Below, piece after piece: positions 11,392 to 35,061 of a DNA stretch of 64,000 nt. The notes under the pieces were generated by a model that saw nothing but the letters and a program-made list of their open reading frames with translations, was not told where the DNA came from and did not search any database. Source of the DNA: Branchiostoma floridae (Eukaryota; Chordata; Leptocardii; Amphioxiformes; Branchiostomatidae). Numbering within the stretch: position 1 is the stretch's first letter; every line of letters begins with the position of its first letter. The stretch covers positions 7,030,087-7,094,086 of the forward strand of contig NC_049991.1 of the NCBI RefSeq assembly GCF_000003815.2, read 5' to 3'. Both the position numbers and the translations under genes were made by a program.

Positions 11392-11503
11392 TTCCCAAGC
11401 TCTAGGTGAGAAGAATTGAGTAGTAAAGACAGTGTAACACCCCCGCACCCACCGGACACATATGGCCGTGTGCTTGTTACAGCCTCTTGGTTACTCTACC
11501 CAG
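11392..11503 (+). CDS. PERCC1: PERCC1-like gene, exon with start codon (ATG 11462)
   Basis: A TTTTTTATACAG acceptor ends at 11391 and an ACCCAG|GTGAGT donor starts at 11504. The exon begins as 5' UTR. From the ATG at 11462 it encodes 14 residues, MAVCLLQPLGYSTQ, and ends exactly on a codon boundary. Joined to the acceptor at 20174 it continues in frame (HEN, then the methionine at 20184). The resulting N terminus resembles the start of human PERCC1, which as I recall begins with MA, then a VIRPLCDF-like hydrophobic stretch. This agreement is the main reason to prefer this start over the internal methionine. A second potential donor lies inside the exon near 11405. Confidence 0.6.
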
Positions 11504-13353
11504 GTGAGTCATAACGTTATTATCTTTACTTATCACATCCTGTATTGTAAACTATGTGGGAGGTAAATTATGGGAGAAAGCTGGAATTGCATATTCTAGA
11601 TAATGCCTTGCTTGTTGTCTTATGTGCACGAACTATAACCATATAGAAAGACGACAGCCGTAGGCATAGAGGTGTATTAGATTATATATATCTATATTTT
11701 TACGCTAAACTAAACTGCTAGCTACGGTGTATGTTTCAGTATACATGCTGAAAAATTTAATGTAGTTTTGTCAAACGTATGCATGTACATTATATAATGC
11801 CTGTTTTTCAATCTCTCTTTTTGGTGTGACGTTTTTGTGTATCTTCTAAATGTAAGTTTGGAATTCTACGTTTGGCTGCAAAACGACTTTGCTAACAGAA
11901 CAAAAGTTGGGATATGATAGAAACAATTCTAGTCGTGTTAACGTTGTAGTTTTTGATACACATTTTGTGTTGTCTTAATTCCATTTGCCCGTTTGCAAAT
12001 TGTTGAAGTTTTTGCAGCATCTTTTTTATCTTTTACTTATTTTACACAAGCTCCATGTAGCATTAGAATGTGGTAGCGTTCTACAATATTTGAGGTACCG
12101 TATGTCTTATTGCTTGCGTAATGTATGACACTGTCCATAGGTTTTGTTGTCGTATATAGGATAATTCTGGATCCAATTTACTCAAAGGATATTATAAGCA
12201 GGCAATTTATCGATAGCTAGTGTATATTAGCTCAAAGGTTTACCTGTATTGGTAGAAGTTACAATTAAGCAAAGGTGAACTGTTATTTCGAACACGAAAA
12301 TGGACTTGAATTTTCAACTGCCCAACTCCAGTCTTTATCTGACATTTTTGTCTACTCTTGAAAAAGACTGAAGTTTGGCATTCTGAAATTTTTGTACTTT
12401 TTGTGTTGGTGTCACAGTTCATCTTCGGACATAGTATACATATGGCTAAATGTGATATTGCTACCGGGTGGTAGACATTTCCAAATGTTCTCGCTATCGC
12501 TAAACACACCGTGCGTGATCCAACAGCAAACGCACGACTCCAGCTGCGCCTTTCTGTCCACAGCTAAAATTGTTTGCGACCCATTTAACCCATGTTGTGA
12601 CAACTGGGGGCTTATGTTTGGCCGGTTTAGCAAGCAACCGCCGAAATTTGGGGCTATTTTTCCCCTTCTGGGTAGCAACAAATTGACACGTTGGCCTAAC
12701 TTTGCATAAACAGGATGGGAGGGGGATGCCTAGAAATGTACTTTACTTTCGTTGCTGTGTACAACACGATGGGAACAACACTTGTAGCTTTTAAGATGGG
12801 CCGGATAAATCGGAGGTTTGGACACTTCCTATGGACCGGCCTCTTGTACATATAAACTCGTACAAAGAGAGATATCGTCCAAACTCGAGCACACAGAATG
12901 AGTAGAGGCGAACACAGGTCAAGTAAATAAACGTTGCGACCCTCTGTTCACAAAATACCGTATTTACGTTTTCTTTATGAAAGAATTGTTGAAACCTCCT
13001 CTCCAAACGTTTGTCATAAAGATTTTTGTATCTGTTAACTCTAGGTAAGTTTCTGGGTGGTTTGAGTGGGTTTCAGCAGGTGTCAGTTTCAAGTGATCAT
13101 TGGTGACCCCGAGTTGACCCCGTGTTGGGGGTACTGGTAAAAATTAATGGCAGAATTAAACCACAGTCACAGACGGTGGTCGCCTTTTGATTATTTTAGG
13201 GTTATAAATGAATACAATTAGAAGCTTTAATGTCATGATCTTCAACGGGAAATTATCCGCTCGATTCTGCCATGGAAAATATGTAATCATCGCGTCATAG
13301 AATTTTTGAAGTTTTTTTCTCGGGTCTGCTGTCTTGTGCTCCATTTTTATTAA

Positions 13354-13579
13354 AACGGCGTTCTCACCGCGCTCTCTCTGCAACCTAAAATTTGACAGAT
13401 CGCTCAACAAATTGTATAGAAAAGAAACGAATCATTTTACACTCTGTGTGTTTCGTTGTCTTCTCAGTCCCACTTTTACATGCTGTTTGATATCCCCAGT
13501 GTGAAAGCAAAGGTTACACATATCCTATATAGGTCGCAGTGAGAGCGCGTCGCTATCGCCTTCTAGTGGAAAGGGGGCC
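13354..13579. mobile_element. MITE, Harbinger-like family A
   Basis: A non-autonomous element of about 226 bp with a TAA beside each end (13351-13353 and 13580-13582). The right terminus reads as GGCCCCCTTTCCACTAG on the minus strand. The left terminus is diverged but keeps the CGCGCTCTCTCTGC subterminal block. The interior (ATCGCTCAACAAATTGTATA and so on) is shared with the copies at 22355, 27059 and 27248. A 3-bp TAA target duplication and GG-starting ends are typical of PIF/Harbinger elements. No transposase is present. Confidence 0.7.
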
Positions 13580-15611
13580 TAAGTCATAATAAGCAATAGA
13601 CTAGTCCATGCAATGGTTATCCTTAATAACTGTATAGCTACATATCTTTGTTCAATTCAAACATTTAGCCATTTCTTATAGTGTCGTTTAAAGTGGTACG
13701 TAGCATTGCATTCGAATGCTGATTCCGGGCTACTTTTTGCAGCGTATTGTTGTCTTGTTGTGAACATTAAAGACACTATAGTGGCATTAGAGCGCTTCAT
13801 ATTTAGATTTTTAAGGATTGAAAATTTGATACAGATATCTGCAAATGGCAAAAAAAAAACATGCAACAAAAACCATACCGTCGTCGTTGTTTATCATTGG
13901 GATAGTAGAGTATGTAAAACCCAGTATCTGTATGATAAAGTTATTATCCCTGTAATCTCAATTGTCTTACTGCCTTTGTTGTGTAATAAGATTACCGAAC
14001 GATCAACAACCGTGTAAAATAGCGGCGAATAAATTTGTCCACCAACTTGTCGAACAAGCCCCCACGCTTGCTAACATAAACTAATTAAGAAAAGTGGGGA
14101 TAAATCGGATTTAACACCTCTTATCAATAATAAGATGTAGAATCTGTGATAAATGGTAGTCTATTATACAAATTATTAACTGGATTAAGTCAAACCTAGT
14201 GAGGGATGAGTGGATATATCAGGATGTTTTGAGAAACGAAAACTTTATTGTTTTGACACGAGGTCAGGTGTTACAATCACCAATCATACTTGCACAAAGC
14301 TTGCAGTTTTAGAAGTTTCCACATATCCAAGCCAAAAACGAATGTGGTTTACCAAGTAAATACGTTTGCGAAGCAGCTACACATCTTACACGTATGCAGT
14401 GTCCCAAGCAATACCGTAAGGCTCGGAGAATTCGGATGTTACTTGGGCTGTGTTGTCCTCCTAATCGTGCTAGACGACCGCAGCTTGAGAACTCAGCTCC
14501 CCAACAGCAGACCTACCGTAAGGTATCCCGATAGAATAAACAGGTACAGTACACAGTTAATACAGCCCATTTCCACTGTCGGCTGCGAACGCGCTGCGAC
14601 CGTTGAGTTTTCAAAGATTCCTCAGTGACTGCATGATCATTCAACGAATTTCAAAAATAAAGAAGAATCTCTAAACGTTTTGTTCTGTTTAAATCATCCC
14701 TTTCCACCTTGCATCATATTACATTCATGAAATAATTCTTACACACATCTACTAGTATTCTTATATACGGTCGCACAGGAGTCGTCGTCCAGTGGCAAAG
14801 GGGTCTTAGACAGTGGCATTAAGGGTCAGTTACATTTGGAAGCATTTCGTCCGAAGAATGAGATTTTAAAGGACAAAACTGAAATTTACGGTTGACATGG
14901 TGTTATCATTTGAAAACTGAGAATTGAGCGTCCTTTTCTGAATTTACACCAAAGAAAATCACGATGCATTTTCATCGCCGTCATCTTAGTACAATGCATT
15001 GTTATTACGTCATACTGTCGCACGATGGGCCGTTGTCTTATGAAAATAGAGGTCATATAATAGAAAAATAGTGAATTTCTAATATTTTTTTACCTTTTTG
15101 AAATTACAATAATCGTTTATTGCATTTGGATGTATTAAAATTATTACATACATGCCAGTTCGTGTGTAAGTATCATAAACTGTGATTTTATTTTAAAAGT
15201 ACATTTCTTGTTTTCTCATAATCAGATTTTACATTTTGCATTTTTGATGAATATGAGTATTGTGCAAAGTATTTTCGTAGATTTTAAAACAAATGCGCTG
15301 TCTAAGCGATTTTCGAACAAGTTGTCTTTCGCTCTGGCTATATCAGTCAAAGAGACCGTACGGTTTTTGCCCATTTGTATGTATGTATGATATGTTCCCA
15401 AGTCGTTTGAAGCTACCAACACTATTCCCATCTAACAATGCTGTACTATGAAAGTATATCTTGAGATTTCTCGGGTATAAGAGAACTTTGGCCCGTGGTA
15501 TTAGTCAGCGATGTTAGTTGTGTATTCTTCGGCCCACGGTCCTAGCAACGGAGCGCACTTTGTCCATCGACCGGCGTGGGGCGAGGTAGGCCGCCTAACG
15601 CAAAGTAAAGA

Positions 15612-15793
15612 TGCGGTCACTTTTGTCGCACGATTATTCTATTTTTTTGTCGTAAAATTTTGAATGTGATTCTGGGTAAATTGATCGTGGACGAGGATTC
15701 GCTAAAGATGAAATGTGCACGACCAATTCACGATTGTTTCTAGAATTTTCTCGGTTCGTTGTCGTTAGCTCGTCGTTTGACAAACGTGACCGG
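15612..15793. mobile_element. MITE-like element, second family
   Basis: The ends form an inverted repeat of roughly 20 bp: left GCGGTCACTTTTGTCGCACG, right (minus strand) CCGGTCACGTTTGTCAAACG. The interior is about 140 bp, AT-rich, with GTCGTAAAATTTT. A related block occurs at about 42385-42460. No coding capacity. Confidence 0.45.
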
Positions 15794-16156
15794 GTCTTGC
15801 ACGTGTGAACATTAGGTCAAAAATAGATAGGCGTAGAAAGAATCAATGTTGTATCCAAGTGGCATGTAAATATATGTAAACTATTTTATCAACTGTTTGT
15901 TCTATTCATGTCAATGATGAAAAAATATTACCCGATTGTTGTCAGCAGACTATGTATTCTCAGCAGTGATCATAATGTCTATGAAAAGTTTTTGTTGTAT
16001 TTTTTTAACAAATCATAAAACGTTTGCGCCCTCCCTTTTGTCTACCCAAAAAATAACTATCATTACTTTGATGGGCTGGTTTATATGACATTATACGGAA
16101 CAAATGCCACTGCCTTTAGAAATTTAGCATTTCAATCATTGCATGGTGTCTCCTTA

Positions 16157-16304
16157 GGCACCCTTTCCACTAGATGGCGATCGCGCTGCGCTCTAACTGC
16201 GACCAAAATAGGATATATGTAACCTTTGCTTTTGTTGATGGATATTTCAAATTTTAGGTCGCAGAGAGAGCGCGGCAAAAAGCCGGCCTAGTGGAAAGGG
16301 GGTA
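16157..16304. mobile_element. MITE, Harbinger-like family A (short copy)
   Basis: Both ends are recognisable: CCCTTTCCACTAGATGGCGA on the left, and its inverse ending in CTAGTGGAAAGGGGGTA on the right. Subterminal GCGCTCTAACTGCGACC and its inverse are also present. TTA precedes and TAA follows the element. It is about 148 bp, shorter than the roughly 220-bp copies, so it has an internal deletion. Confidence 0.7.
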
Positions 16305-18313
16305 TAACCAATACTACATACTCCCATGCACGGTGATGCACCTTAATCCACATTTTTGTGGTTTGACGAACTGTCATCTGAACATTCAACATGCATCCTC
16401 TTGAAATGTAGCCATCACCAAGAAATATTGGAGGACCCTTTTGATGTCAAGCCTTTTTTGTGATTTTTTCATTTAGATTTTACAAAAATCATACATTCAA
16501 AGCTTTTGACTGGCACAAATGCAACCGTGTTTTTTTTATTCAAATGAACCGCAAAACAAGGCTGTAAGATTAAATGTTTTGCGTCATTGTACTGAATTTT
16601 TATTTTACTTTTCAGTTAAAAATTTAGGTTTTACCTACCATGAAAGCAATGACCTGAAAATCTCTCTTCACAACAAATTAATTCAAAGGAAAGAATCTTT
16701 CAGTGTGTAACTTTTTCCTAAGAGGTGAGTTATGGAATAAGAAAGAATGATTTGCTTCCGAGGAAGTGGCTAAACGTCTTCTCTGAAAAGGTTCTGCGAA
16801 GTTCTGCGGAGAAGTTGCCGTGGAAATAGCGAGAGGGTAACGCCTAACTTGCCATGTTGCGCCTTTTACAAGAGGGATGTAAGAGGGCAAACACTGTCAG
16901 CCTCCCATCGTAAACGATTTGGTAGTACTACGCTGTTGAGACAGGTTAGGGAGCTCTAGGTGTTGACAGATAGGTAGTGACAGATGTACGTGCAGTGTCG
17001 TGCAGTGCTTAAGCAGACGCCCCCCGCCCGACGTCCACCTGTTCAGGACGGTCACTCGCCCCTCTTATCATAGCTAATCCCAAGTGGCACTATTCTTGCT
17101 TATATTGGCTACTGTTGCAGTGTCTTATACTCAAATCTAGAATGGTAAAAATGGGATTTGCGGGTCGAGATCTAAAACAAATAGCCACCTTCATTTTACT
17201 ACTCAATATGAAATCACGGTGCAAGGGTAGTCTTTCCCTGTATCCACAGCCTGTACAATTCTCATTCGCTAACAAATACGGCCCGTAGTTGCATGTACCA
17301 ATTGAATGTAAAATTTAGGTCCTTGAATCCATGTTCTTAAGCATGTTCTTTTTTCAATGAGGAAAGCATTGTGGTAAGAGCACAATAACACATTTTGAGC
17401 TTCATATATTTTACATATGACTAACAAATCACTAATTTCATATTAAGGTGTTATTTTTCATACCATACGAAACCGTTTCTATGAAAAACTTTTCATCAAA
17501 AGTTGGAACGTCTCAATAGCGAAGCTATAGACGTAACGCGTCGCTATTGGGTTGCATAGTCTCACTTCTTATGAAAATCTAAATAAAGGGCACACTAAAC
17601 ATTTACGGAATGGCTTGGTCATAAGGAAGACAGCAATGCAGCGTATGCACACTCCCAATTTGAAATATAATGCGCAAAAGGGTTGAAATGGTTCTTGACT
17701 CAACTACTGCTATGTACTTACTGTAAAGTCAACTCATGCGGCCATCCAACTTAGGTATAAATCTGTGGGATTTAGTCCATGAACGGTTAGTGTCGGTAAT
17801 CTTCAATGTTCTCAGCGACTAGAGTAGAGAAACGCTTCAGGTTCTCTTGAAACATTGCTTAGTTGCATGCTGTCTAAATTTATGCGACGTTCTAAATGTA
17901 CTTTCGACAAACGTTACTATGTATATCATTATATCTTGTATTATATATTGTTCCTTCATTTACGGGAAGAATGTATTTTTTTCGCTGACTGTAAGTAAGC
18001 AAACCCGTTTTTAGCTTTCACCATAAGTAGCAACATTAACAGTTCGCAACTCGCTATTGTGTTTCAACATCACCATCCGGCCCGGACATGGCTTCTCTTT
18101 TCAGCTCTTCCTACCTCTTTCCGAGTGTCCGGAAAGTAGCTTTCAAAAATAGCCACGATATCCTCGTTAAGAAGCCATTTGTATCAGCGAAGCCGACGTT
18201 TTTGCGATGATCGGGCCAATTTCGGGAGGGAGTAAACCACATTTAACGACTAGCTAAACATGGGTCCAGTGTATTGAATGGGGATTATGGTCCAGTGGGC
18301 AAACGTACTATAC

Positions 18314-18328
18314 TAGCGCCCCCTGTTG
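18314..18328 (-). promoter_or_regulatory. CTCF-like binding motif
   Basis: TAGCGCCCCCTGTTG matches the core of the reverse-complement CTCF consensus (TAGCGCCCCCTGGTGG) apart from its end. CTCF is conserved across bilaterians. The site lies in the presumed large intron of the PERCC1-like gene. A single motif match is weak evidence of binding. Confidence 0.35.
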
Positions 18329-20174
18329 TAAAGTACGGGGACTTTTTTCTTTGGAAAACATCAGATGGCTTCTATTGTGGCGATTATTTAACTACTCGTG
18401 CAATCCCTTAATATAACATTCTTTATTTTACAAAAAATTTTATTTGCACGAAATATAAGAAAAAATGTTTAGATTTCTGTATCATTGAAAGAGGCTTTAT
18501 TCCGAAGCGTACATATACGTTCATTTTTAAGGGTACATGTATATTCGCATTCAAGTATTGCAAATTTTTATTACAGCATGTATCCATGATTTTATTACAG
18601 CATGTATGGTATTTATGCATATTTCTGCCATGCGTATATAGACACAACTCTACAACCGATAATGACTTTTTATACTTCTTTGGATAGTAATATTGGCATT
18701 CCTGCTTGACCTGTTATGAGAGTGCTTGACTCAACTATTACATATGTTTTTAATTTTTATGTTTCCATAGTAAAAGGTATTACATTCACGCGTGTTATAT
18801 ATTGTATCTGGCCACATTTGAACTTTTAAGTTTCAAAACCGACGTATGCCACATTTATTTGGTCCGTTTGCGTTTGGTTACCACATTCTGGAGCGTTTGT
18901 CGTATAGTGTCTCATAAGAAAGCCTTAAGCTGACAATGCTTTATCATTGAATGCCTGATACAAGCCGATAGGAAATAATTCTTAAGAAATATCAAAAAGG
19001 CATCGATTTTGAACACAAATTATGAAAAATGCAGCTATTTTAAACAAACAAGATTTGACGTTACTCTCAACACTTAGGGAGAAAATTATGAGATACCAAT
19101 TACTCGATATTTATTCTGCTTTCCACATTTCTCATTTAGGCCGGTGTCGTAGGAATGTAATTTGGAAAAGGCATTTGTTTGGCAAAAAGTTTAAAAGTAT
19201 ATGACATGGTGGCAAAGGGAAAACGAGAGATTATGACATTGTCACTGATTTATGAAATAAAAGGGAAAATATGCCTCGCATTTTTGTTGTATGCGTTGGT
19301 TCTGGTTTGAGAATTTAGTGCTAGAGTTATCGTTCTGAATTTTCTGTTGAAAAAGCAAGATAAGTTTTTACATTGTTCACCTTTTGAAGTAGAGTTTCAT
19401 ATAACATTATATCCAAATTAATGTCTAATCATGGGTGAACCCACCGACAATTATTGTTATTCGATATGAATCCATATTCGACATTATTTGTAATCTTTAT
19501 TACTGGTATTAAATGTTTAATTTCTCGTCCCTAGAATTGCATGCTTATCAATTGTGAAGGATAATTTCATATTTTATATGTACAGACATATATTAGATGT
19601 ATATTGAAATTCAAAATATTGTGATAAAAAGATTTTAAATTTTTTCAAAAATCGTAAAAAAGACAATTTTGTCGGATTCGTTGTAAAGCTTCTTCAAATT
19701 TTAGGGCATTTCTGCTATGTACTCTGTTGTATTTAGCATCAATTAACGCGTGCAATTACGGGTTGTAATATCCCTTTTATCGTATTTTATTCCAAGGATT
19801 TTTCGAAAGAAATGGATTAACCAACAATTGCAAGAAAAGGAAAATGATAGCAAACTTTGCCATAGTATATGGGAGATTGAATTAACAAGCTAGCATATAG
19901 CTAAACTTTTGTATATTCAATAGTGCTATACCTTGAATGATTATAGATGTTTCATGAAAAAGTTTTTAACATTAAAATTTCAACCCAATTCACTGGGTCA
20001 GCCATTCTAATTATAGGGAATCAGGCCGCATGCGCGTGTTTGACAGTGGCCAATATTTTGAATGGCTGGCATCGGTTGCAGGGCAATTATTTGATTAATT
20101 GTGTGACAGGTCGCCTGTGATAGATTGATTATATTAACCACTGCCTTACACGCACGTTTTCTGTTTGACAACAG

Positions 20175-21002
20175 CATGAGAATATGGCTACCGGTAGTGC
20201 GGTGAAGGCGGGGTCGGGCACCAAGGACGACCTCACCCGTAGGCGTTTCTCGGACGCCCCGATGCACGATGTCACCGAGTCCGAGGAAGAAGAGGAAGAA
20301 ATCGAGGACGATGAGATCGACAACGTCTCGAACTACACCGGGGAGGACGTCGAGTCTCCTCGGAGTGAAGTCCTCGCGGAGCCCGCCCACGACATGACCA
20401 AACAGCTGCTCGACTTCGCGGAATCCGTCAACAACGACATCCAGAAATATTTCGGCAGGAAAAAGAACGATCCGGACTCGTGCGACATTTACGAGGATCG
20501 CTTCACTTCGGGAAAGTCCGGTCGGGAACTCTACTACGCCGATCTGTTACGAATCGCTCAGAACGGCGACTCGGCAGACACCGGACACTCGACGAAGAAC
20601 TCACAGCAGTCGCGCAAAGACGGCAGCGACGGTCTCTACAAAAAGGGCGGCACGCTCGGCCCCTTGCAAGACCTCTTCGAATTCGGTCTCAAGAAACACA
20701 TCGTAGAAAACAAACTCATCAAATCCAGCAAGAAGCTGAAGCGTCTCAAGCTAGATACGCGTCTTGAAGACATCGTGCCAATGCAGAAGAGAAAGTTGCC
20801 GGATTCTTTCTTCAAGGAGCCATATGCGAGAGTTTCGGATGGGCGTGTGACCCTTGTCAACTCGAGCACACCAGACTTTAGTGATCTGTTAGCCACTTGG
20901 ACCGAGGTTGGTGGAAGTGAGGTAAGCGGGGAGGGGGAGGCCTCGTCCCCGGAAGATGTGAGCATGGACACCGAGAACTCTCCCATCGAACGCCTAGCAT
21001 AA
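20175..21002 (+). CDS. PERCC1: PERCC1-like protein, main coding exon
   Basis: Homologue of vertebrate PERCC1, whose loss causes congenital diarrhoea through failure of enteroendocrine cells. The biochemical role is unknown, and an intracellular (perhaps nuclear) location is inferred from the lack of a signal peptide or membrane helix. A good acceptor (TTTCTGTTTGACAACAG) ends at 20174. With the upstream exon the product is 289 residues. In that numbering: an acidic run at 50-62; DIQKYFGRKKNDPDSCDIYE at about 102-121; ELYYADLLRIA at about 132-142; LGPLQDLFEFGLK at 175-187; a lysine-rich patch near 194-207; QKRKLPDSFFKEP at 218-230; TPDFSDLLATW at 246-256. Each of these has a close counterpart in human PERCC1 as I remember it. 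The exon is GC-richer than its flanks. A GTAAGC inside it near 20921 could act as an alternative donor. Confidence 0.75.
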   Translation, partial: HENMATGSAVKAGSGTKDDLTRRRFSDAPMHDVTESEEEEEEIEDDEIDNVSNYTGEDVESPRSEVLAEPAHDMTKQLLDFAESVNNDIQKYFGRKKNDPDSCDIYEDRFTSGKSGRELYYADLLRIAQNGDSADTGHSTKNSQQSRKDGSDGLYKKGGTLGPLQDLFEFGLKKHIVENKLIKSSKKLKRLKLDTRLEDIVPMQKRKLPDSFFKEPYARVSDGRVTLVNSSTPDFSDLLATWTEVGGSEVSGEGEASSPEDVSMDTENSPIERLA

Positions 21003-21115
21003 CGGTAGTGATTGTCATAGTTTTAACTTTTGGTCATCGTCTCAGAATAGTTATGTGTTACTACGTACAGACTTAGGCAAGCGTAAAGGATAATAAATAT
21101 ACAAATGCTTGAAAC
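21003..21115 (+). terminator. 3' UTR and poly(A) signal of the PERCC1-like gene
   Basis: AATAAA at 21092-21097, 90 bases after the TAA stop, is followed by a T-rich stretch at about 21117-21124. This gives a short, plausible 3' end. Confidence 0.6.
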
Positions 21116-25045: not shown

Positions 25046-27055
25046 TGAAAATCTTAGAAATTTGCCAAAAGATGAGAGATACTTTATTAAAGAATTAGGT
25101 TAGACCGGTATTTAAAGATTTCTCGCGGTTGTAACAATCGGTAACTATATGGCTAGCCAACTCAACTGGACAATTTTCAGTTTTCAGAGCAACTTACAAC
25201 CCACATATCCGATGTACATTTTATTTAGTTCATTGACCATTTACCACGGCATTTGAGTCATATTTCATTTCTAAAGTCGTTTATCGCGTTCTTGATGTTC
25301 TAATGTGGTATCTCACTGCACTTGGAGCACCGGTGTGGCACTGCGGGGTTCGTCAACTGAGGCACTGATGTGTTATTTTTGCCTTTTTAAAAACAATTTT
25401 AGATATTCCGTAATACTTAAAAGTATGACTTTGTAGACGAACACCACACTACCGCACCGGTGCCCCAGGTACGTGCAGTGAGATACCGCCTTCAGGTTCA
25501 CCAATGTTCGATGTTTCAGCCCCTTCAGCAGAAACGGGAACAGGAGACTGTTTCGTGAGCACTTCCGTTTGCGTCAAATCACCTCCTTCTCACATCGTCT
25601 CCCTGGTGACCAACCAGATGTTTGTACTTTTTCAAGAGGAGCAACTTCCGAAGTGTGGAACAAGGTTACATGATAAATGGTAGGATGATAAAGACCGTGA
25701 AGCCGATGTTGTTACAACTATGTATACAGTTAGTTTAATGCCCCAGCAGATCTTCTGGTGGCAAATTCGTTATGCATGTAGGTCAAGGTAGCATACATGG
25801 CCTACTATTTTGCTACCATGGATTTTAGTTTTTTTTTTGTTGAACTTTATAAACATTATTACAGATCGCAAAGCATCAGAAGCAGGAGAAGGAAACAATA
25901 TGTTTTACGCCTTGGATTATCATAGTTTGCTACAGATTTTTAAACATACCACAAAAGACAATGATGAGGCAAGAAATTATGCCATATCGGCCCACACTTT
26001 TACACTGACCTATCTGCCAATAGTATGACACTGACTGAGCTATGTGGCAGACGGTCTTGTGGTAAGGATTGTTGACTTATTTAGTAAATGTTCTGGGTTC
26101 AAATCCCTCAAGTAGATCTCAGAGTTGTGCCCTTGGGGAAAACACTTTACACGCCTATTCCTTTACTTCACTCAGGTGAGTAGATCAAACCTTAAGCTTA
26201 CAGTCAAGTGTCTGGGTTGACATCTTCACCTGCTTTGTCAATCAACTTCTACTTCGGAATCCACAGACTATTTATGGTATCGAAAGTTCGTTGTTCTCCA
26301 ACAAAACTAATTATAGTTTTCTTAGGGCTGACAGTTGATTACTTCCGTGCAATGGCCAAGTGTGCAGAATGTCCCATTTGTTTTCGGTTTCTTGTGACTT
26401 CCATCCCCAGTCGAGTCATACCAAAGGTTTAGAAAAAGAATACATACCGCTTTCTTTTCTTAGCAATCAGCATTTGAGAACTAGTATAGTGATTGAGAAC
26501 AAACCACAATCACTGGACTATCCCCTGCTAAAGTAAATGCACACGGTTTTGTGTGTGTATGTGTGTGTGTCTAAGGAGGGCGGAGGGAGGAAACGCCCAT
26601 TGAACAATTTTTGACTGATATCAAGAATTGAAAAGCATTTTCTCAGACTTCCTTACACGTCCAAGTAACAGATCACCCTATAACTATGTCCAGTCTTCTT
26701 ATCAAAATCAGCCAAGAGGTCGAATCAGGATGTCACACAAAAATCATAAAGAATTCCTTATACCTGTTCTTGTTGCTTTAAAATTAGTGTCTGACAGTCA
26801 TGATAAATCTTTTACTAATAAGACATCCGTGATATGCATATCCATTCTCCACAGGACGCATCTGACGACAGAACAAGTAGTAAGCTATGCGTCGTCTCAT
26901 CATATCACCGGACTCCCGCACATAATCAACACCTAGCATGTTTCCCTTAGTCAATCAAAACGAGCTTAATGTTCCCGTACGGACCGTAGCATGGCTCCGT
27001 CGCCCAAGAAGCCGGCCTTCCCCGTCCACCGGTCCCAAGGACGTACCCTGTTTGC
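25046..27055. other. Intergenic, no gene seen
   Basis: AT-rich sequence with an imperfect inverted pair around 25310-25490 (GGTATCTCACTGCACTTGGA against its near reverse complement), probably the ends of an old MITE. It also holds the SINE at 26037 and a short GT-rich run near 26550. Confidence 0.35.
26037..26210 (+). mobile_element. tRNA-derived SINE (diverged)
   Basis: B box GGGTTCAAATCCC at 26095-26107, then TTGGGGAAAACACTTTACAC...CACTCAGGTGAGTA. This is the same tail module as the SINE at 23193. The ends are approximate. Confidence 0.55.
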
Positions 27056-27058
27056 TAA

Positions 27059-27244
27059 GGCCCCCTTTCCACTAGACGGCGATCACTCTGCGCTCTCTCT
27101 GCGATCTACACTTTGACATATCGCTCAACAAATTGTATAGAAAAGAAACGAATCTTTTTACGCTTTGTGTGTTTTGTTGTCTTCTCGGTCAAACTTTTAC
27201 GTTTTGCATGATATACAGTATAGTATGAAAGAGGATGTTACACA
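27059..27244. mobile_element. MITE, Harbinger-like family A (partial)
   Basis: A TAA then GGCCCCCTTTCCACTAGACG starts the element. The interior runs parallel to the copy at 13354 in the same orientation. It breaks off after GTTACACA, exactly where the copy at 27248 begins, so it was interrupted or truncated there. Confidence 0.65.
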
Positions 27245-27247
27245 TAA

Positions 27248-27463
27248 GGCCTCCTTTCCACTAGACGGCGATCGCGCTGTGCTCTCACTGCGACCCAAAT
27301 AGAACACGTGTAACCCTTGATTTCAACTGAACGGACAACAAAACACATTCAAATAGTGTAAATAAAAAGTTCGCTTCTTTTCTATGTAGTTCGTTGAGCG
27401 ATCTGTAAAATTTTAGTCGCAGAGAGAGTGCCGCGAGAGTGCCGTCCTTGTGGAAATGGGGTA
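27248..27463. mobile_element. MITE, Harbinger-like family A (complete, inverted)
   Basis: About 216 bp, flanked by TAA on both sides (27245-27247 and 27464-27466). The ends are GGCCTCCTTTCCACTAGACG and its inverse. The interior runs in the opposite direction to the neighbouring copy, as shown by ACAACAAAACACA and TCGTTGAGCGATCTG. Confidence 0.75.
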
Positions 27464-29280: not shown

Positions 29281-30130
29281 CTTAATCTGTATTGTCTGTA
29301 GACAATGGCGCCAAGCGTGAGCCTCTTATCGTCGTCACGTTAAGGCACCATTGTGTGCGGGTTTGGGCCTTGGAAGCCCAAGTGGTCCAAACACACTTCT
29401 TTGTAGAGCCCAGTTTATCGGAAAGGACGTAAACGCTTCCTGATAAACTATAAACAACGCCGAAAGGACATCAAACGCGAGCTGGCCTGCGGTTGGTTAA
29501 AGCTACCGATTTAAATGGCACGACGGTTATAACGAATGCCTTTTTGAAATCTACGAAGGGCGGGTATAAAGTTCAGTGGTTGAAAGCTGCAGGTGTCATA
29601 CGATTTCTACATTAATTAACATTAATACAGGTACTTCAAGAAGATAAGATGATCGCCGTGTGTTTCTAGGATGCTAATGACTCTTTCGGAGGGAGCCTAT
29701 ATCCCTCTATACACAAGGAAATACAGGTCGCCCCATCCAATGAAGTGTCCGACTCCATTAAAACCCAATATTCCCGCCTCCACTAAAATTGCAAAAATAA
29801 CCAAAGGCGTCCATATTGCTATCAAAATGCACTGTGACTCTTTGTTTCTCGTCTGGCCAATTATATTGGCACACAGTCCCGCAATCGCGGAGACCGGTAA
29901 TTTATCGGGCTGGGTAAACTTCTCCTCCCTTGTGGCCGGTCCGAAAAACAATGTCCCCCCGCCGGGAGTTCCGGGGTTGCATGGTACACCTGAAATGGTA
30001 GAACACCTGAGGACCCCTCGGGCGTCTTTTTAATGAAGTCTGTTAAAAATTGACCTTCCAAAATCAACCTCGGAAATGCTTAGGTCGTGCGGACGGCAAA
30101 GTTTTGCTACATTCTGTCCAATTTGCTAAC
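29281..30130. other. Unique GC-richer non-coding block, possible regulatory DNA
   Basis: A non-repetitive, compositionally distinct block between AT-rich flanks. It holds several short inverted motifs: ACAATGG...CCATTGT (Sox-like), TTTATCGGAAAGG...CCTGATAAAC, CTTGGAAGCCCAAG, and GGCCAATTATATTGGC (paired CCAAT). Open frames exist on both strands at 29671-30033 but carry no domain signal. It may be an enhancer for either neighbour; nothing more can be shown. Confidence 0.25.
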
Positions 30131-34143: not shown

Positions 34144-34215
34144 TTCCCACACCGGGAATCGAACCCGGGCCTTGGCGGTGAGAGCGCCAAATCCTAACCA
34201 CTAGACCATATGGGA
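34144..34215 (-). tRNA. tRNA-Glu (CTC)
   Basis: 72 bases on the minus strand fold as a complete cloverleaf. The acceptor stem is TCCCATA/TGTGGGA with one G-T pair. The D arm carries the A box (GGTCTAGTGGTTAGG). The anticodon stem TGGCG/CGCCA is fully paired, with loop CTCTCAC (anticodon CTC), and the T arm carries GGTTCGATTCC. A TTTTT polymerase III terminator follows about 15 bp downstream on that strand. It decodes GAG and looks functional. Confidence 0.9.
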
Positions 34216-34989: not shown

Positions 34990-35061
34990 TTCCTACACCG
35001 GGAATCGAACCCGGGCCTTGGCGGTGAGAGGGCAAAATCCTAACCACTAGACCATATGGGA
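34990..35061 (-). pseudogene. tRNA-Glu (CTC) pseudogene
   Basis: This is a near copy of the tRNA at 34144, also 72 bases, with intact A and B boxes and anticodon CTC. The anticodon stem TTGCC/CGCCA has two mismatches (28-42 and 31-39) and the acceptor stem has a C-A mismatch (4-69). It keeps a downstream T run. It could still be transcribed but probably not charged normally. Confidence 0.7.

What the first reader, a model, noticed from the sequence alone, without database searches (positions are those of the whole stretch)
11392..21002. PERCC1 homologue with a hidden 14-codon first coding exon
The main exon (20175-21002) carries ordered motifs shared with human PERCC1 as I recall it (DIQxYFGRK, DPDxCDxY, ELYYADL, LGPLxxLFxxGL, RKLPxSFxKEP, TPDFSDLLA). 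A phase-0 exon 8.7 kb upstream adds MAVCLLQPLGYSTQ, matching the hydrophobic start of the vertebrate protein. A gene finder reading single ORFs would start at the internal methionine and miss it. PERCC1 is usually discussed as a vertebrate gut-hormone-cell factor, so a copy outside vertebrates would date it earlier.
Basis: partly seen in the sequence, partly recalled or inferred. Interest (0 to 1): 0.75.

Follow-up and report, generated by a model that had tools for sequence, protein, structure and literature searches.

The report
Lancelet PERCC1, a TEAD co-factor gene
This is the lancelet's version of PERCC1, a gene needed by gut hormone cells in people and mice; such copies outside vertebrates were already reported in 2022, but here the protein's first 14 residues probably sit on a separate small exon, and its tail resembles that of a related lancelet protein.

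Summary
Exon 20175-21002 (+) is open and carries the six PERCC1 motifs named; joining 11462-11503 in phase 0 gives 289 residues. Pfam's TEAD-binding omega loop (TEADIR3) matches above its cut-off (33.5 vs 26 bits). The assembly fits Branchiostoma floridae (513.43 vs 513.46 Mb; ninth contig 25.44 Mb, the published N50 with L50 = 9). The dating claim is not new: PMC9710580 (2022) reports PERCC1 in echinoderms, molluscs, annelids and chelicerates, within the YAP/TAZ/FAM181 family. The hidden exon is likely but unproven: it has one of only two perfect donors among 3945 + strand GTs, but its resemblance to the recalled human start is not significant alone (107 of 600 simulated upstreams match it; 1 of 600 with a good donor too). 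Human exon 1 is non-coding. Most likely function: TEAD-bound co-regulator. One addition: the tail motif TPDFSDLLATW recurs, in order, in the lancelet FAM181B-like protein (NPDIADLITNW; 1 of 2000 shuffles), where PMC9710580's main text describes this region only for PERCC1. A lancelet member of a known family.

The parts
11392..11461 (+). probable 5' untranslated part of the small exon, preceded by an AG acceptor; no ATG; two stops in frame with the start codon
   Evidence: 35 of 3334 AGs have as good a pyrimidine tract and YAG
11462..11503 (+). probable first coding exon, MAVCLLQPLGYSTQ, ending at donor CAG|GTGAGT (phase 0)
   Evidence: the only one of 440 upstream candidates with a 9/9 donor; one of 2 such donors among 3945 GTs on the + strand
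11504..20174 (+). inferred intron, 8671 bases, GT-AG
   Evidence: no junction reads available
20175..21002 (+). main coding exon of PERCC1, residues 15-289 plus stop
   Evidence: second-highest codon-use score listed in the window (this exon was itself in the training set)
20176..20178 (+). out-of-frame ATG (9 codons, then stop) lying before the internal in-frame ATG at 20184
20403..20462 (+). N-terminal helix QLLDFAESVNNDIQKYFGRK (residues 91-110), similar to the FAM181 N-terminal helix
   Evidence: a helix also in the low-confidence model
20469..20498 (+). PERCC1 motif DPDSCDIYED (residues 113-122)
   Evidence: aligned with the recalled human sequence
20526..20546 (+). PERCC1 motif ELYYADL (residues 132-138)
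20655..20690 (+). TEAD interface 2, LGPLQDLFEFGL (LxxLF; residues 175-186)
   Evidence: LxxLF consensus from PMC9710580
20775..20822 (+). TEAD interface 3 (omega loop), VPMQKRKLPDSFFKEP (residues 215-230)
   Evidence: Pfam TEADIR3 33.5 bits, cut-off 26; YAP1 chains in the PDB, best E 0.0062
20868..20900 (+). C-terminal motif TPDFSDLLATW (residues 246-256), also seen as NPDIADLITNW in the lancelet FAM181B-like protein
   Evidence: 1 of 2000 shuffles as good
21092..21097 (+). AATAAA, possible polyadenylation signal 90 bases after the stop
   Evidence: read directly

Best explanation
The locus is a lancelet (very probably Branchiostoma floridae) PERCC1 gene. A short exon at about 11392-11503 supplies the start codon and 14 residues, an 8.7 kb phase-0 intron follows, and 20175-21002 supplies the rest. 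The mostly disordered protein should work as a transcriptional co-regulator with no DNA-binding domain of its own. Its LxxLF helix (interface 2) and its RKLPDSFFKEP omega loop (interface 3) dock on the lancelet TEAD factor as YAP does, and the conserved C-terminal PDFSDLLATW helix probably recruits co-activators. Shown here: sequence, motifs, a Pfam omega-loop match, a TEA-domain gene in the same genome, and a C-terminal motif shared with the lancelet FAM181B-like protein. Inferred: splicing of the small exon, TEAD binding, the activating role of the tail, and expression in gut endocrine cells.
For: Open frame and join. TEADIR3 33.5 bits over a cut-off of 26. Among PDB hits, YAP1 and FAM181A peptides match at the omega loop (10 of 14 rows, 10 of 13; the rest are unrelated and weak). 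Alignment to the recalled human PERCC1: the part after residue 80 scores 303 against a maximum of 51 in 1000 shuffles; that recalled sequence passes two printed checks, S216 and Y130 (facts from PMC9710580 and PMC10182134). One locus by DNA search in the own genome. TEA-domain exons at two places 17 kb apart on C19. The other four TEADIR3 loci above cut-off read as FAM181A-like, FAM181B-like, YAP-like and one unassigned. For the small exon: perfect donor, no upstream ATG back to 11392, and the out-of-frame ATG at 20176 that makes the internal start 20184 awkward. Species: size, N50 and L50 fit B. floridae.
Against: No transcript supports the junction. The 14 residues alone are not significantly like the vertebrate start (297 of 300 simulated upstreams match over residues 2-14; 107 of 600 over the best prefix). 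The acceptor at 20175 is ordinary (214 of 3334 AGs are as good). Human PERCC1 has its coding sequence in exon 2, so the model needs an intron gained, lost or moved. Interface 2 is too short to be significant pairwise: against the YAP-like exon 761 of 2000 shuffles score as well, and against the FAM181B-like exon the best window is not interface 2 at all (574 of 2000). The structure model is poor (mean pLDDT 41.8). The human sequence compared was recalled, not fetched. TEAD binding by PERCC1 is a prediction in PMC9710580, not an assay.
Confidence: 0.82

Rival explanations
1. Same gene, but the small exon is not coding or not part of it. The 5' exon is untranslated as in human, and the protein starts at the internal Met at 20184 (MATGSAVKAG..., 272 aa).
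For: Human PERCC1 has a non-coding exon 1 and its coding sequence in exon 2 (PMC10182134 passage). The internal start also begins M-A-x-G like the recalled human MAAG (prefix score 10 against 16).
Against: An out-of-frame ATG at 20176, with an A at -3 if joined to the small exon, precedes 20184. The candidate small exon carries a 9/9 donor (1 of 440 candidates) and the best prefix score of 2994 candidates, tied with one other start that has a 4/9 donor.
Confidence: 0.17
2. The gene is a FAM181 or YAP/TAZ family member rather than PERCC1.
For: It shares the omega loop with all of them and the N-terminal helix and C-terminal motif with FAM181B-like.
Against: It carries DPDxCDxY and ELYYADL, which I do not see in the translated lancelet FAM181A-like, FAM181B-like or YAP-like frames (for YAP one exon only). 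Those three sit at their own loci. The KYLQKQ(L/I)KR block of both FAM181-like proteins is absent here.
Confidence: 0.03
3. It is a repressor or competitor: PERCC1 occupies the YAP site on TEAD without activating, damping Hippo output in the cells that express it.
For: Interface 3 matches YAP's by sequence and LxxLF is present; no WW domain is found, and the protein is short.
Against: The tail motif conserved in order with FAM181B-like looks more like a short activation helix; that is inference only.
Confidence: 0.3

Closest known systems
PERCC1 (human, vertebrates; also echinoderms, molluscs, annelids, chelicerates per PMC9710580)
   Same: Same ordered blocks: acidic N-terminal stretch, helix ending in YFGRK, DPDxCDxY, ELYYADL, LxxLF, RKLPxSFxKEP, TPDFSDLLAxW (against a human sequence recalled from memory).
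   Different: Probable separate 14-codon first exon with an 8.7 kb intron in the coding region, where human has a non-coding exon 1. The omega loop reads SFF, as in YAP, where the recalled human PERCC1 reads SFW.
FAM181A / FAM181B (lancelet copies at C1 and C7, L008 and L009)
   Same: Omega loop; N-terminal helix resembles (42 and 59 of 2000 shuffles as good); FAM181B-like also has LxxLF and a collinear PDxxDLxxxW tail (1 of 2000).
   Different: They have the KYLQKQ(L/I)KR block and lack ELYYADL and DPDxCDxY.
YAP/TAZ (lancelet YAP-like exon at C12, L011)
   Same: LxxLF followed by VPMxxRxLPxSFF.
   Different: PERCC1 has a longer linker between the two interfaces, and no WW domain is found in it, whereas YAP1 has WW domains (PMC9710580 figure legend).

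Membership tests
PERCC1 | TEAD interface 3, PxxxRxLPxSFFxxP (consensus from PMC9710580) | tested here: met
   VPMQKRKLPDSFFKEP; TEADIR3 33.5 bits over 26
PERCC1 | TEAD interface 2, LxxLF, before interface 3 | tested here: met
   LQDLF within residues 175-186, before residues 215-230; too short to be significant alone
PERCC1 | PERCC1 N-terminal and C-terminal conserved regions | tested here: inconclusive
   Blocks align strongly, but to a human sequence recalled from memory (part after residue 80: 303 vs shuffle maximum 51). The published alignment is in a supplement that could not be read.
PERCC1 | Reciprocal best match to vertebrate PERCC1 in a full protein database | not testable with these tools
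   No eukaryotic protein collection is offered; one scan each of the viral and prokaryote collections found no relative
PERCC1 | Expression in gut endocrine cells | not testable with these tools
   No expression data
YAP/TAZ | WW domain(s) | tested here: not met
   At E up to 10 Pfam gives only TEADIR3 and a sub-cut-off DUF2486 hit
FAM181 | N-terminal helix followed by the KYLQKQ(L/I)KR block (block recalled, and seen in both lancelet FAM181-like loci) | tested here: not met
   Helix present, block absent
TEAD-binding co-factor | Physical binding to TEAD | not testable with these tools
   TEA-domain exons are present on C19; binding not assayed

The most novel reading that the evidence does not exclude
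PERCC1 and FAM181B are sister TEAD co-factors that share a whole architecture (helix, LxxLF, omega loop, PD(F/I)xDL(L/I)xxW tail), and the lancelet pair still shows it. The tail would be a shared activation helix, and the first-exon start of PERCC1 an old chordate feature whose intron vertebrates lost. If lancelet PERCC1 is expressed in gut endocrine cells, the role seen in human disease predates vertebrates.
Probability: 0.35. Interest if true: 0.5.

Novelty: new member of a known kind. Interest (0 to 1): 0.35.

Why it matters
Human PERCC1 loss causes congenital diarrhoea through faulty enteroendocrine cells, and its molecular mechanism is predicted but untested (PMC9710580, PMC10182134). In this lancelet genome the TEA search found exons that look like one TEAD gene and the DNA search one PERCC1 locus, so the TEAD-cofactor idea could be tested there with little redundancy. 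A correct N-terminus matters for any such test, since a construct begun at the internal Met would lack 17 residues.

Tried and rejected
Looked for relatives in viral contigs (245 pattern matches, none a relative by tblastn) and genome contigs (589, none). These collections are not of animals, so this says nothing about animals. Oz-Levi 2019 (PMC7061489) is not held. AlphaFold of the main exon gave mean pLDDT 41.8 and was not searched further. Judging the small exon by its BLOSUM score over residues 2-14 failed to support it, and I kept that result. The regular-expression match MA..hh.PL was chosen after recalling the human start, so I give it little weight. Tried to name the fifth TEADIR3 locus (C14; L010, L015, L016): Pfam and PDB give only the omega loop, and reading the open frames around it did not help. 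PMC11175523 (passages) was looked at for chromosome matches and not used. The mitochondrial COX1 check of species did not complete. No protein search for diverged PERCC1 copies in the own genome was answered.
Full report
Observation. The main exon 20175-21002 lies in an open frame of 277 codons. Joined in phase 0 to 11462-11503 it gives a 289-residue product.

Family. Pfam gives TEADIR3, the omega-loop TEAD-interacting region, at 33.5 bits against a cut-off of 26. In the PDB, YAP1 and FAM181A peptides match by sequence at this place (10 of 14 rows, best E 0.051 for the main exon from its internal Met; 10 of 13 rows, best E 0.0062 for residues 170-232; the other rows are unrelated proteins at E 0.52 or worse). 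A human PERCC1 sequence recalled from memory, which satisfies two printed facts (serine 216 in interface 3, tyrosine 130, from PMC9710580 and PMC10182134), aligns across the protein. The part after residue 80 scores 303, while the best of 1000 shuffles scores 51; the whole scores 331 against 61. As the sequence was recalled, this is a strong lead rather than a database result.

What is in print. PMC9710580, main text read whole (figures and supplement not held), shows PERCC1 to be a YAP/TAZ/FAM181 relative with interfaces 2 and 3. [quoted passage not shown] So the dating claim of the finding was already published. PMC10182134 (passages only) calls human exon 1 non-coding and exon 2 the coding sequence. 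A search for PERCC1 listed 20 papers, some of them chance matches; none of the titles or abstract starts shown concerns a lancelet gene, and I opened two of the 20. Two wider searches (5 of 837 listed, 10 of 29 listed) added nothing on a lancelet PERCC1.

Organism. The window is G000:C13:7030087-7094086. The assembly has 513,431,437 bases in 431 contigs. I saw nine contig lengths: the seven numbered 19 or lower fall from 35.3 Mb (C1) to 17.1 Mb (C19), and C20 and C21 are under 4 kb. PMC9673378 (passages) lists B. floridae at 513.46 Mb, N50 25.44 Mb, L50 9, n = 19, with 20 sequences above 1 Mb; the ninth contig here, C9, is 25,441,410 bases. PMC12373286 (passages) also speaks of 19 chromosomes. 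B. lanceolatum assemblies are 466 to 495 Mb and B. belcheri 426 Mb. The window is therefore very probably B. floridae. A mitochondrial check could not be run.

The small exon. In favour: among 440 phase-0 mini-exons (up to 60 codons) upstream of the acceptor, this is the only one with a 9/9 donor. Of 3945 GTs on the + strand two have such a donor and 15 have 8/9. No ATG lies between the acceptor-like AG before 11392 and the start codon, and two stops lie in frame upstream. The internal in-frame start at 20184 is preceded by an out-of-frame ATG at 20176. Against: over residues 2-14 the similarity to the recalled human start is reached by some candidate in 297 of 300 simulated upstream regions, and in 6 of 300 if the donor must be 8/9 or better. 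With the best-prefix score it is reached in 107 of 600, in 1 of 600 with a donor of 8/9 or better, and in 0 of 600 with 9/9. A 9/9 donor candidate of any sequence appears in 23 of 300 simulations. The simulations are first-order Markov sequences, so they are only a rough null, and the prefix score was tried after the 13-residue score had failed. I put the exon at about 0.8.

Relatives in the same genome. A TEADIR3 search at E up to 10 scored 150 of 339 candidates and gave 16 matches, five of them over the cut-off; in the control, 7 of 14 well-known genomes had a match at that E-value and 0 of 14 over the cut-off. The window's gene ranks first. C1 reads as FAM181A-like (412-residue frame), C7 as FAM181B-like (two exons), and C12 as YAP-like (one exon). 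These names rest on recalled motifs, since Pfam gives only the omega loop for them. C14 has an exon with VPMRLRALPQSFWQQP that I could not assign. A sixth locus on C9, below the cut-off, looks Vestigial-like from recall. The TEA-domain search gave two matches 17 kb apart on C19, which looks like one TEAD gene (control 0 of 14).

Shared tail. The C-terminal PERCC1 motif TPDFSDLLATW has its best match in the lancelet FAM181B-like C-part at NPDIADLITNW, score 37, reached by 1 of 2000 shuffles. It lies after the omega loop in both proteins. The FAM181A-like C-part shows nothing (943 of 2000). The N-terminal helix match is modest: 59 of 2000 for FAM181B-like, 42 of 2000 for FAM181A-like. Interface 2 is not significant pairwise (574 and 761 of 2000). 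The window lengths (11, 20 and 8) were set with the motifs in mind, after the alignment had shown the tail. PMC9710580 already states the shared N-terminal helix; its main text describes the C-terminal region only for PERCC1 (its supplement was not available to me).

Mechanism. By analogy with YAP, the protein most likely docks on TEAD through LxxLF and the omega loop and brings its tail to chromatin. The PDFSDLLATW helix resembles short acidic activation motifs (recalled, inference). A repressor-by-competition role is not excluded. The structure model is low in confidence (pLDDT 41.8, pTM 0.19; helices among others at model residues 66-91, 113-127 and 159-178), which fits a mostly disordered protein but proves nothing.

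Surroundings. Downstream on the same strand (about 43-64 kb) lies a polycystin-1-like gene: PKD (7 stretches) and REJ over their cut-offs, WSC just over (28.2 vs 27.8), GPS and Laminin_G_3 below theirs. No other gene was recognised in 1-43 kb, but the look was coarse: a codon-use listing of the best 60 stretches, whose background was taken from 22-43 kb itself, and three frames sent to Pfam (1466-1918 -, 14257-14625 +, 29700-30029 -), with one weak sub-cut-off hit among them.

Verdict. A real lancelet PERCC1 gene with a probable short coding first exon; an expected member of a family whose presence outside vertebrates is already in print.

Noticed in passing
window 43000-64000 (+): Polycystin-1-like gene (seven PKD stretches, REJ, WSC, sub-cut-off GPS and LamG_3) about 22 kb downstream of PERCC1. 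Human PKD1 and PERCC1 are both on 16p13.3 (recalled), so this may be old linkage.
   Followed up: partly
L010 (G000:C14:10078404-10081451), exon at about locus 1496-1621: A fifth TEADIR3 locus over the cut-off (VPMRLRALPQSFWQQP, 34.4 bits), on an exon with splice-like ends, that I could not assign to YAP, FAM181, PERCC1 or VGLL; possibly another TEAD-binding protein.
   Followed up: partly
L012 (G000:C9:5543290-5546328): Sub-cut-off omega loop TSPMAQRNFPPSFWNSAYQPP that looks like a Vestigial/VGLL2 relative (recalled).
   Followed up: no
window 26176: The only other 9/9 splice donor on the + strand; no exon was assigned to it.
   Followed up: no
window 13355-13583, 16147-16311, 27049-27416: Copies of a foldback, MITE-like repeat (GGCCCCCTTTCCACTAGACGGCGATCGC...), two of them inside the inferred PERCC1 intron.
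   Followed up: no
window 34144-34215 and 34990-35061 (-): tRNA-Glu (CTC) and a nearby second copy with an odd anticodon loop.
   Followed up: no
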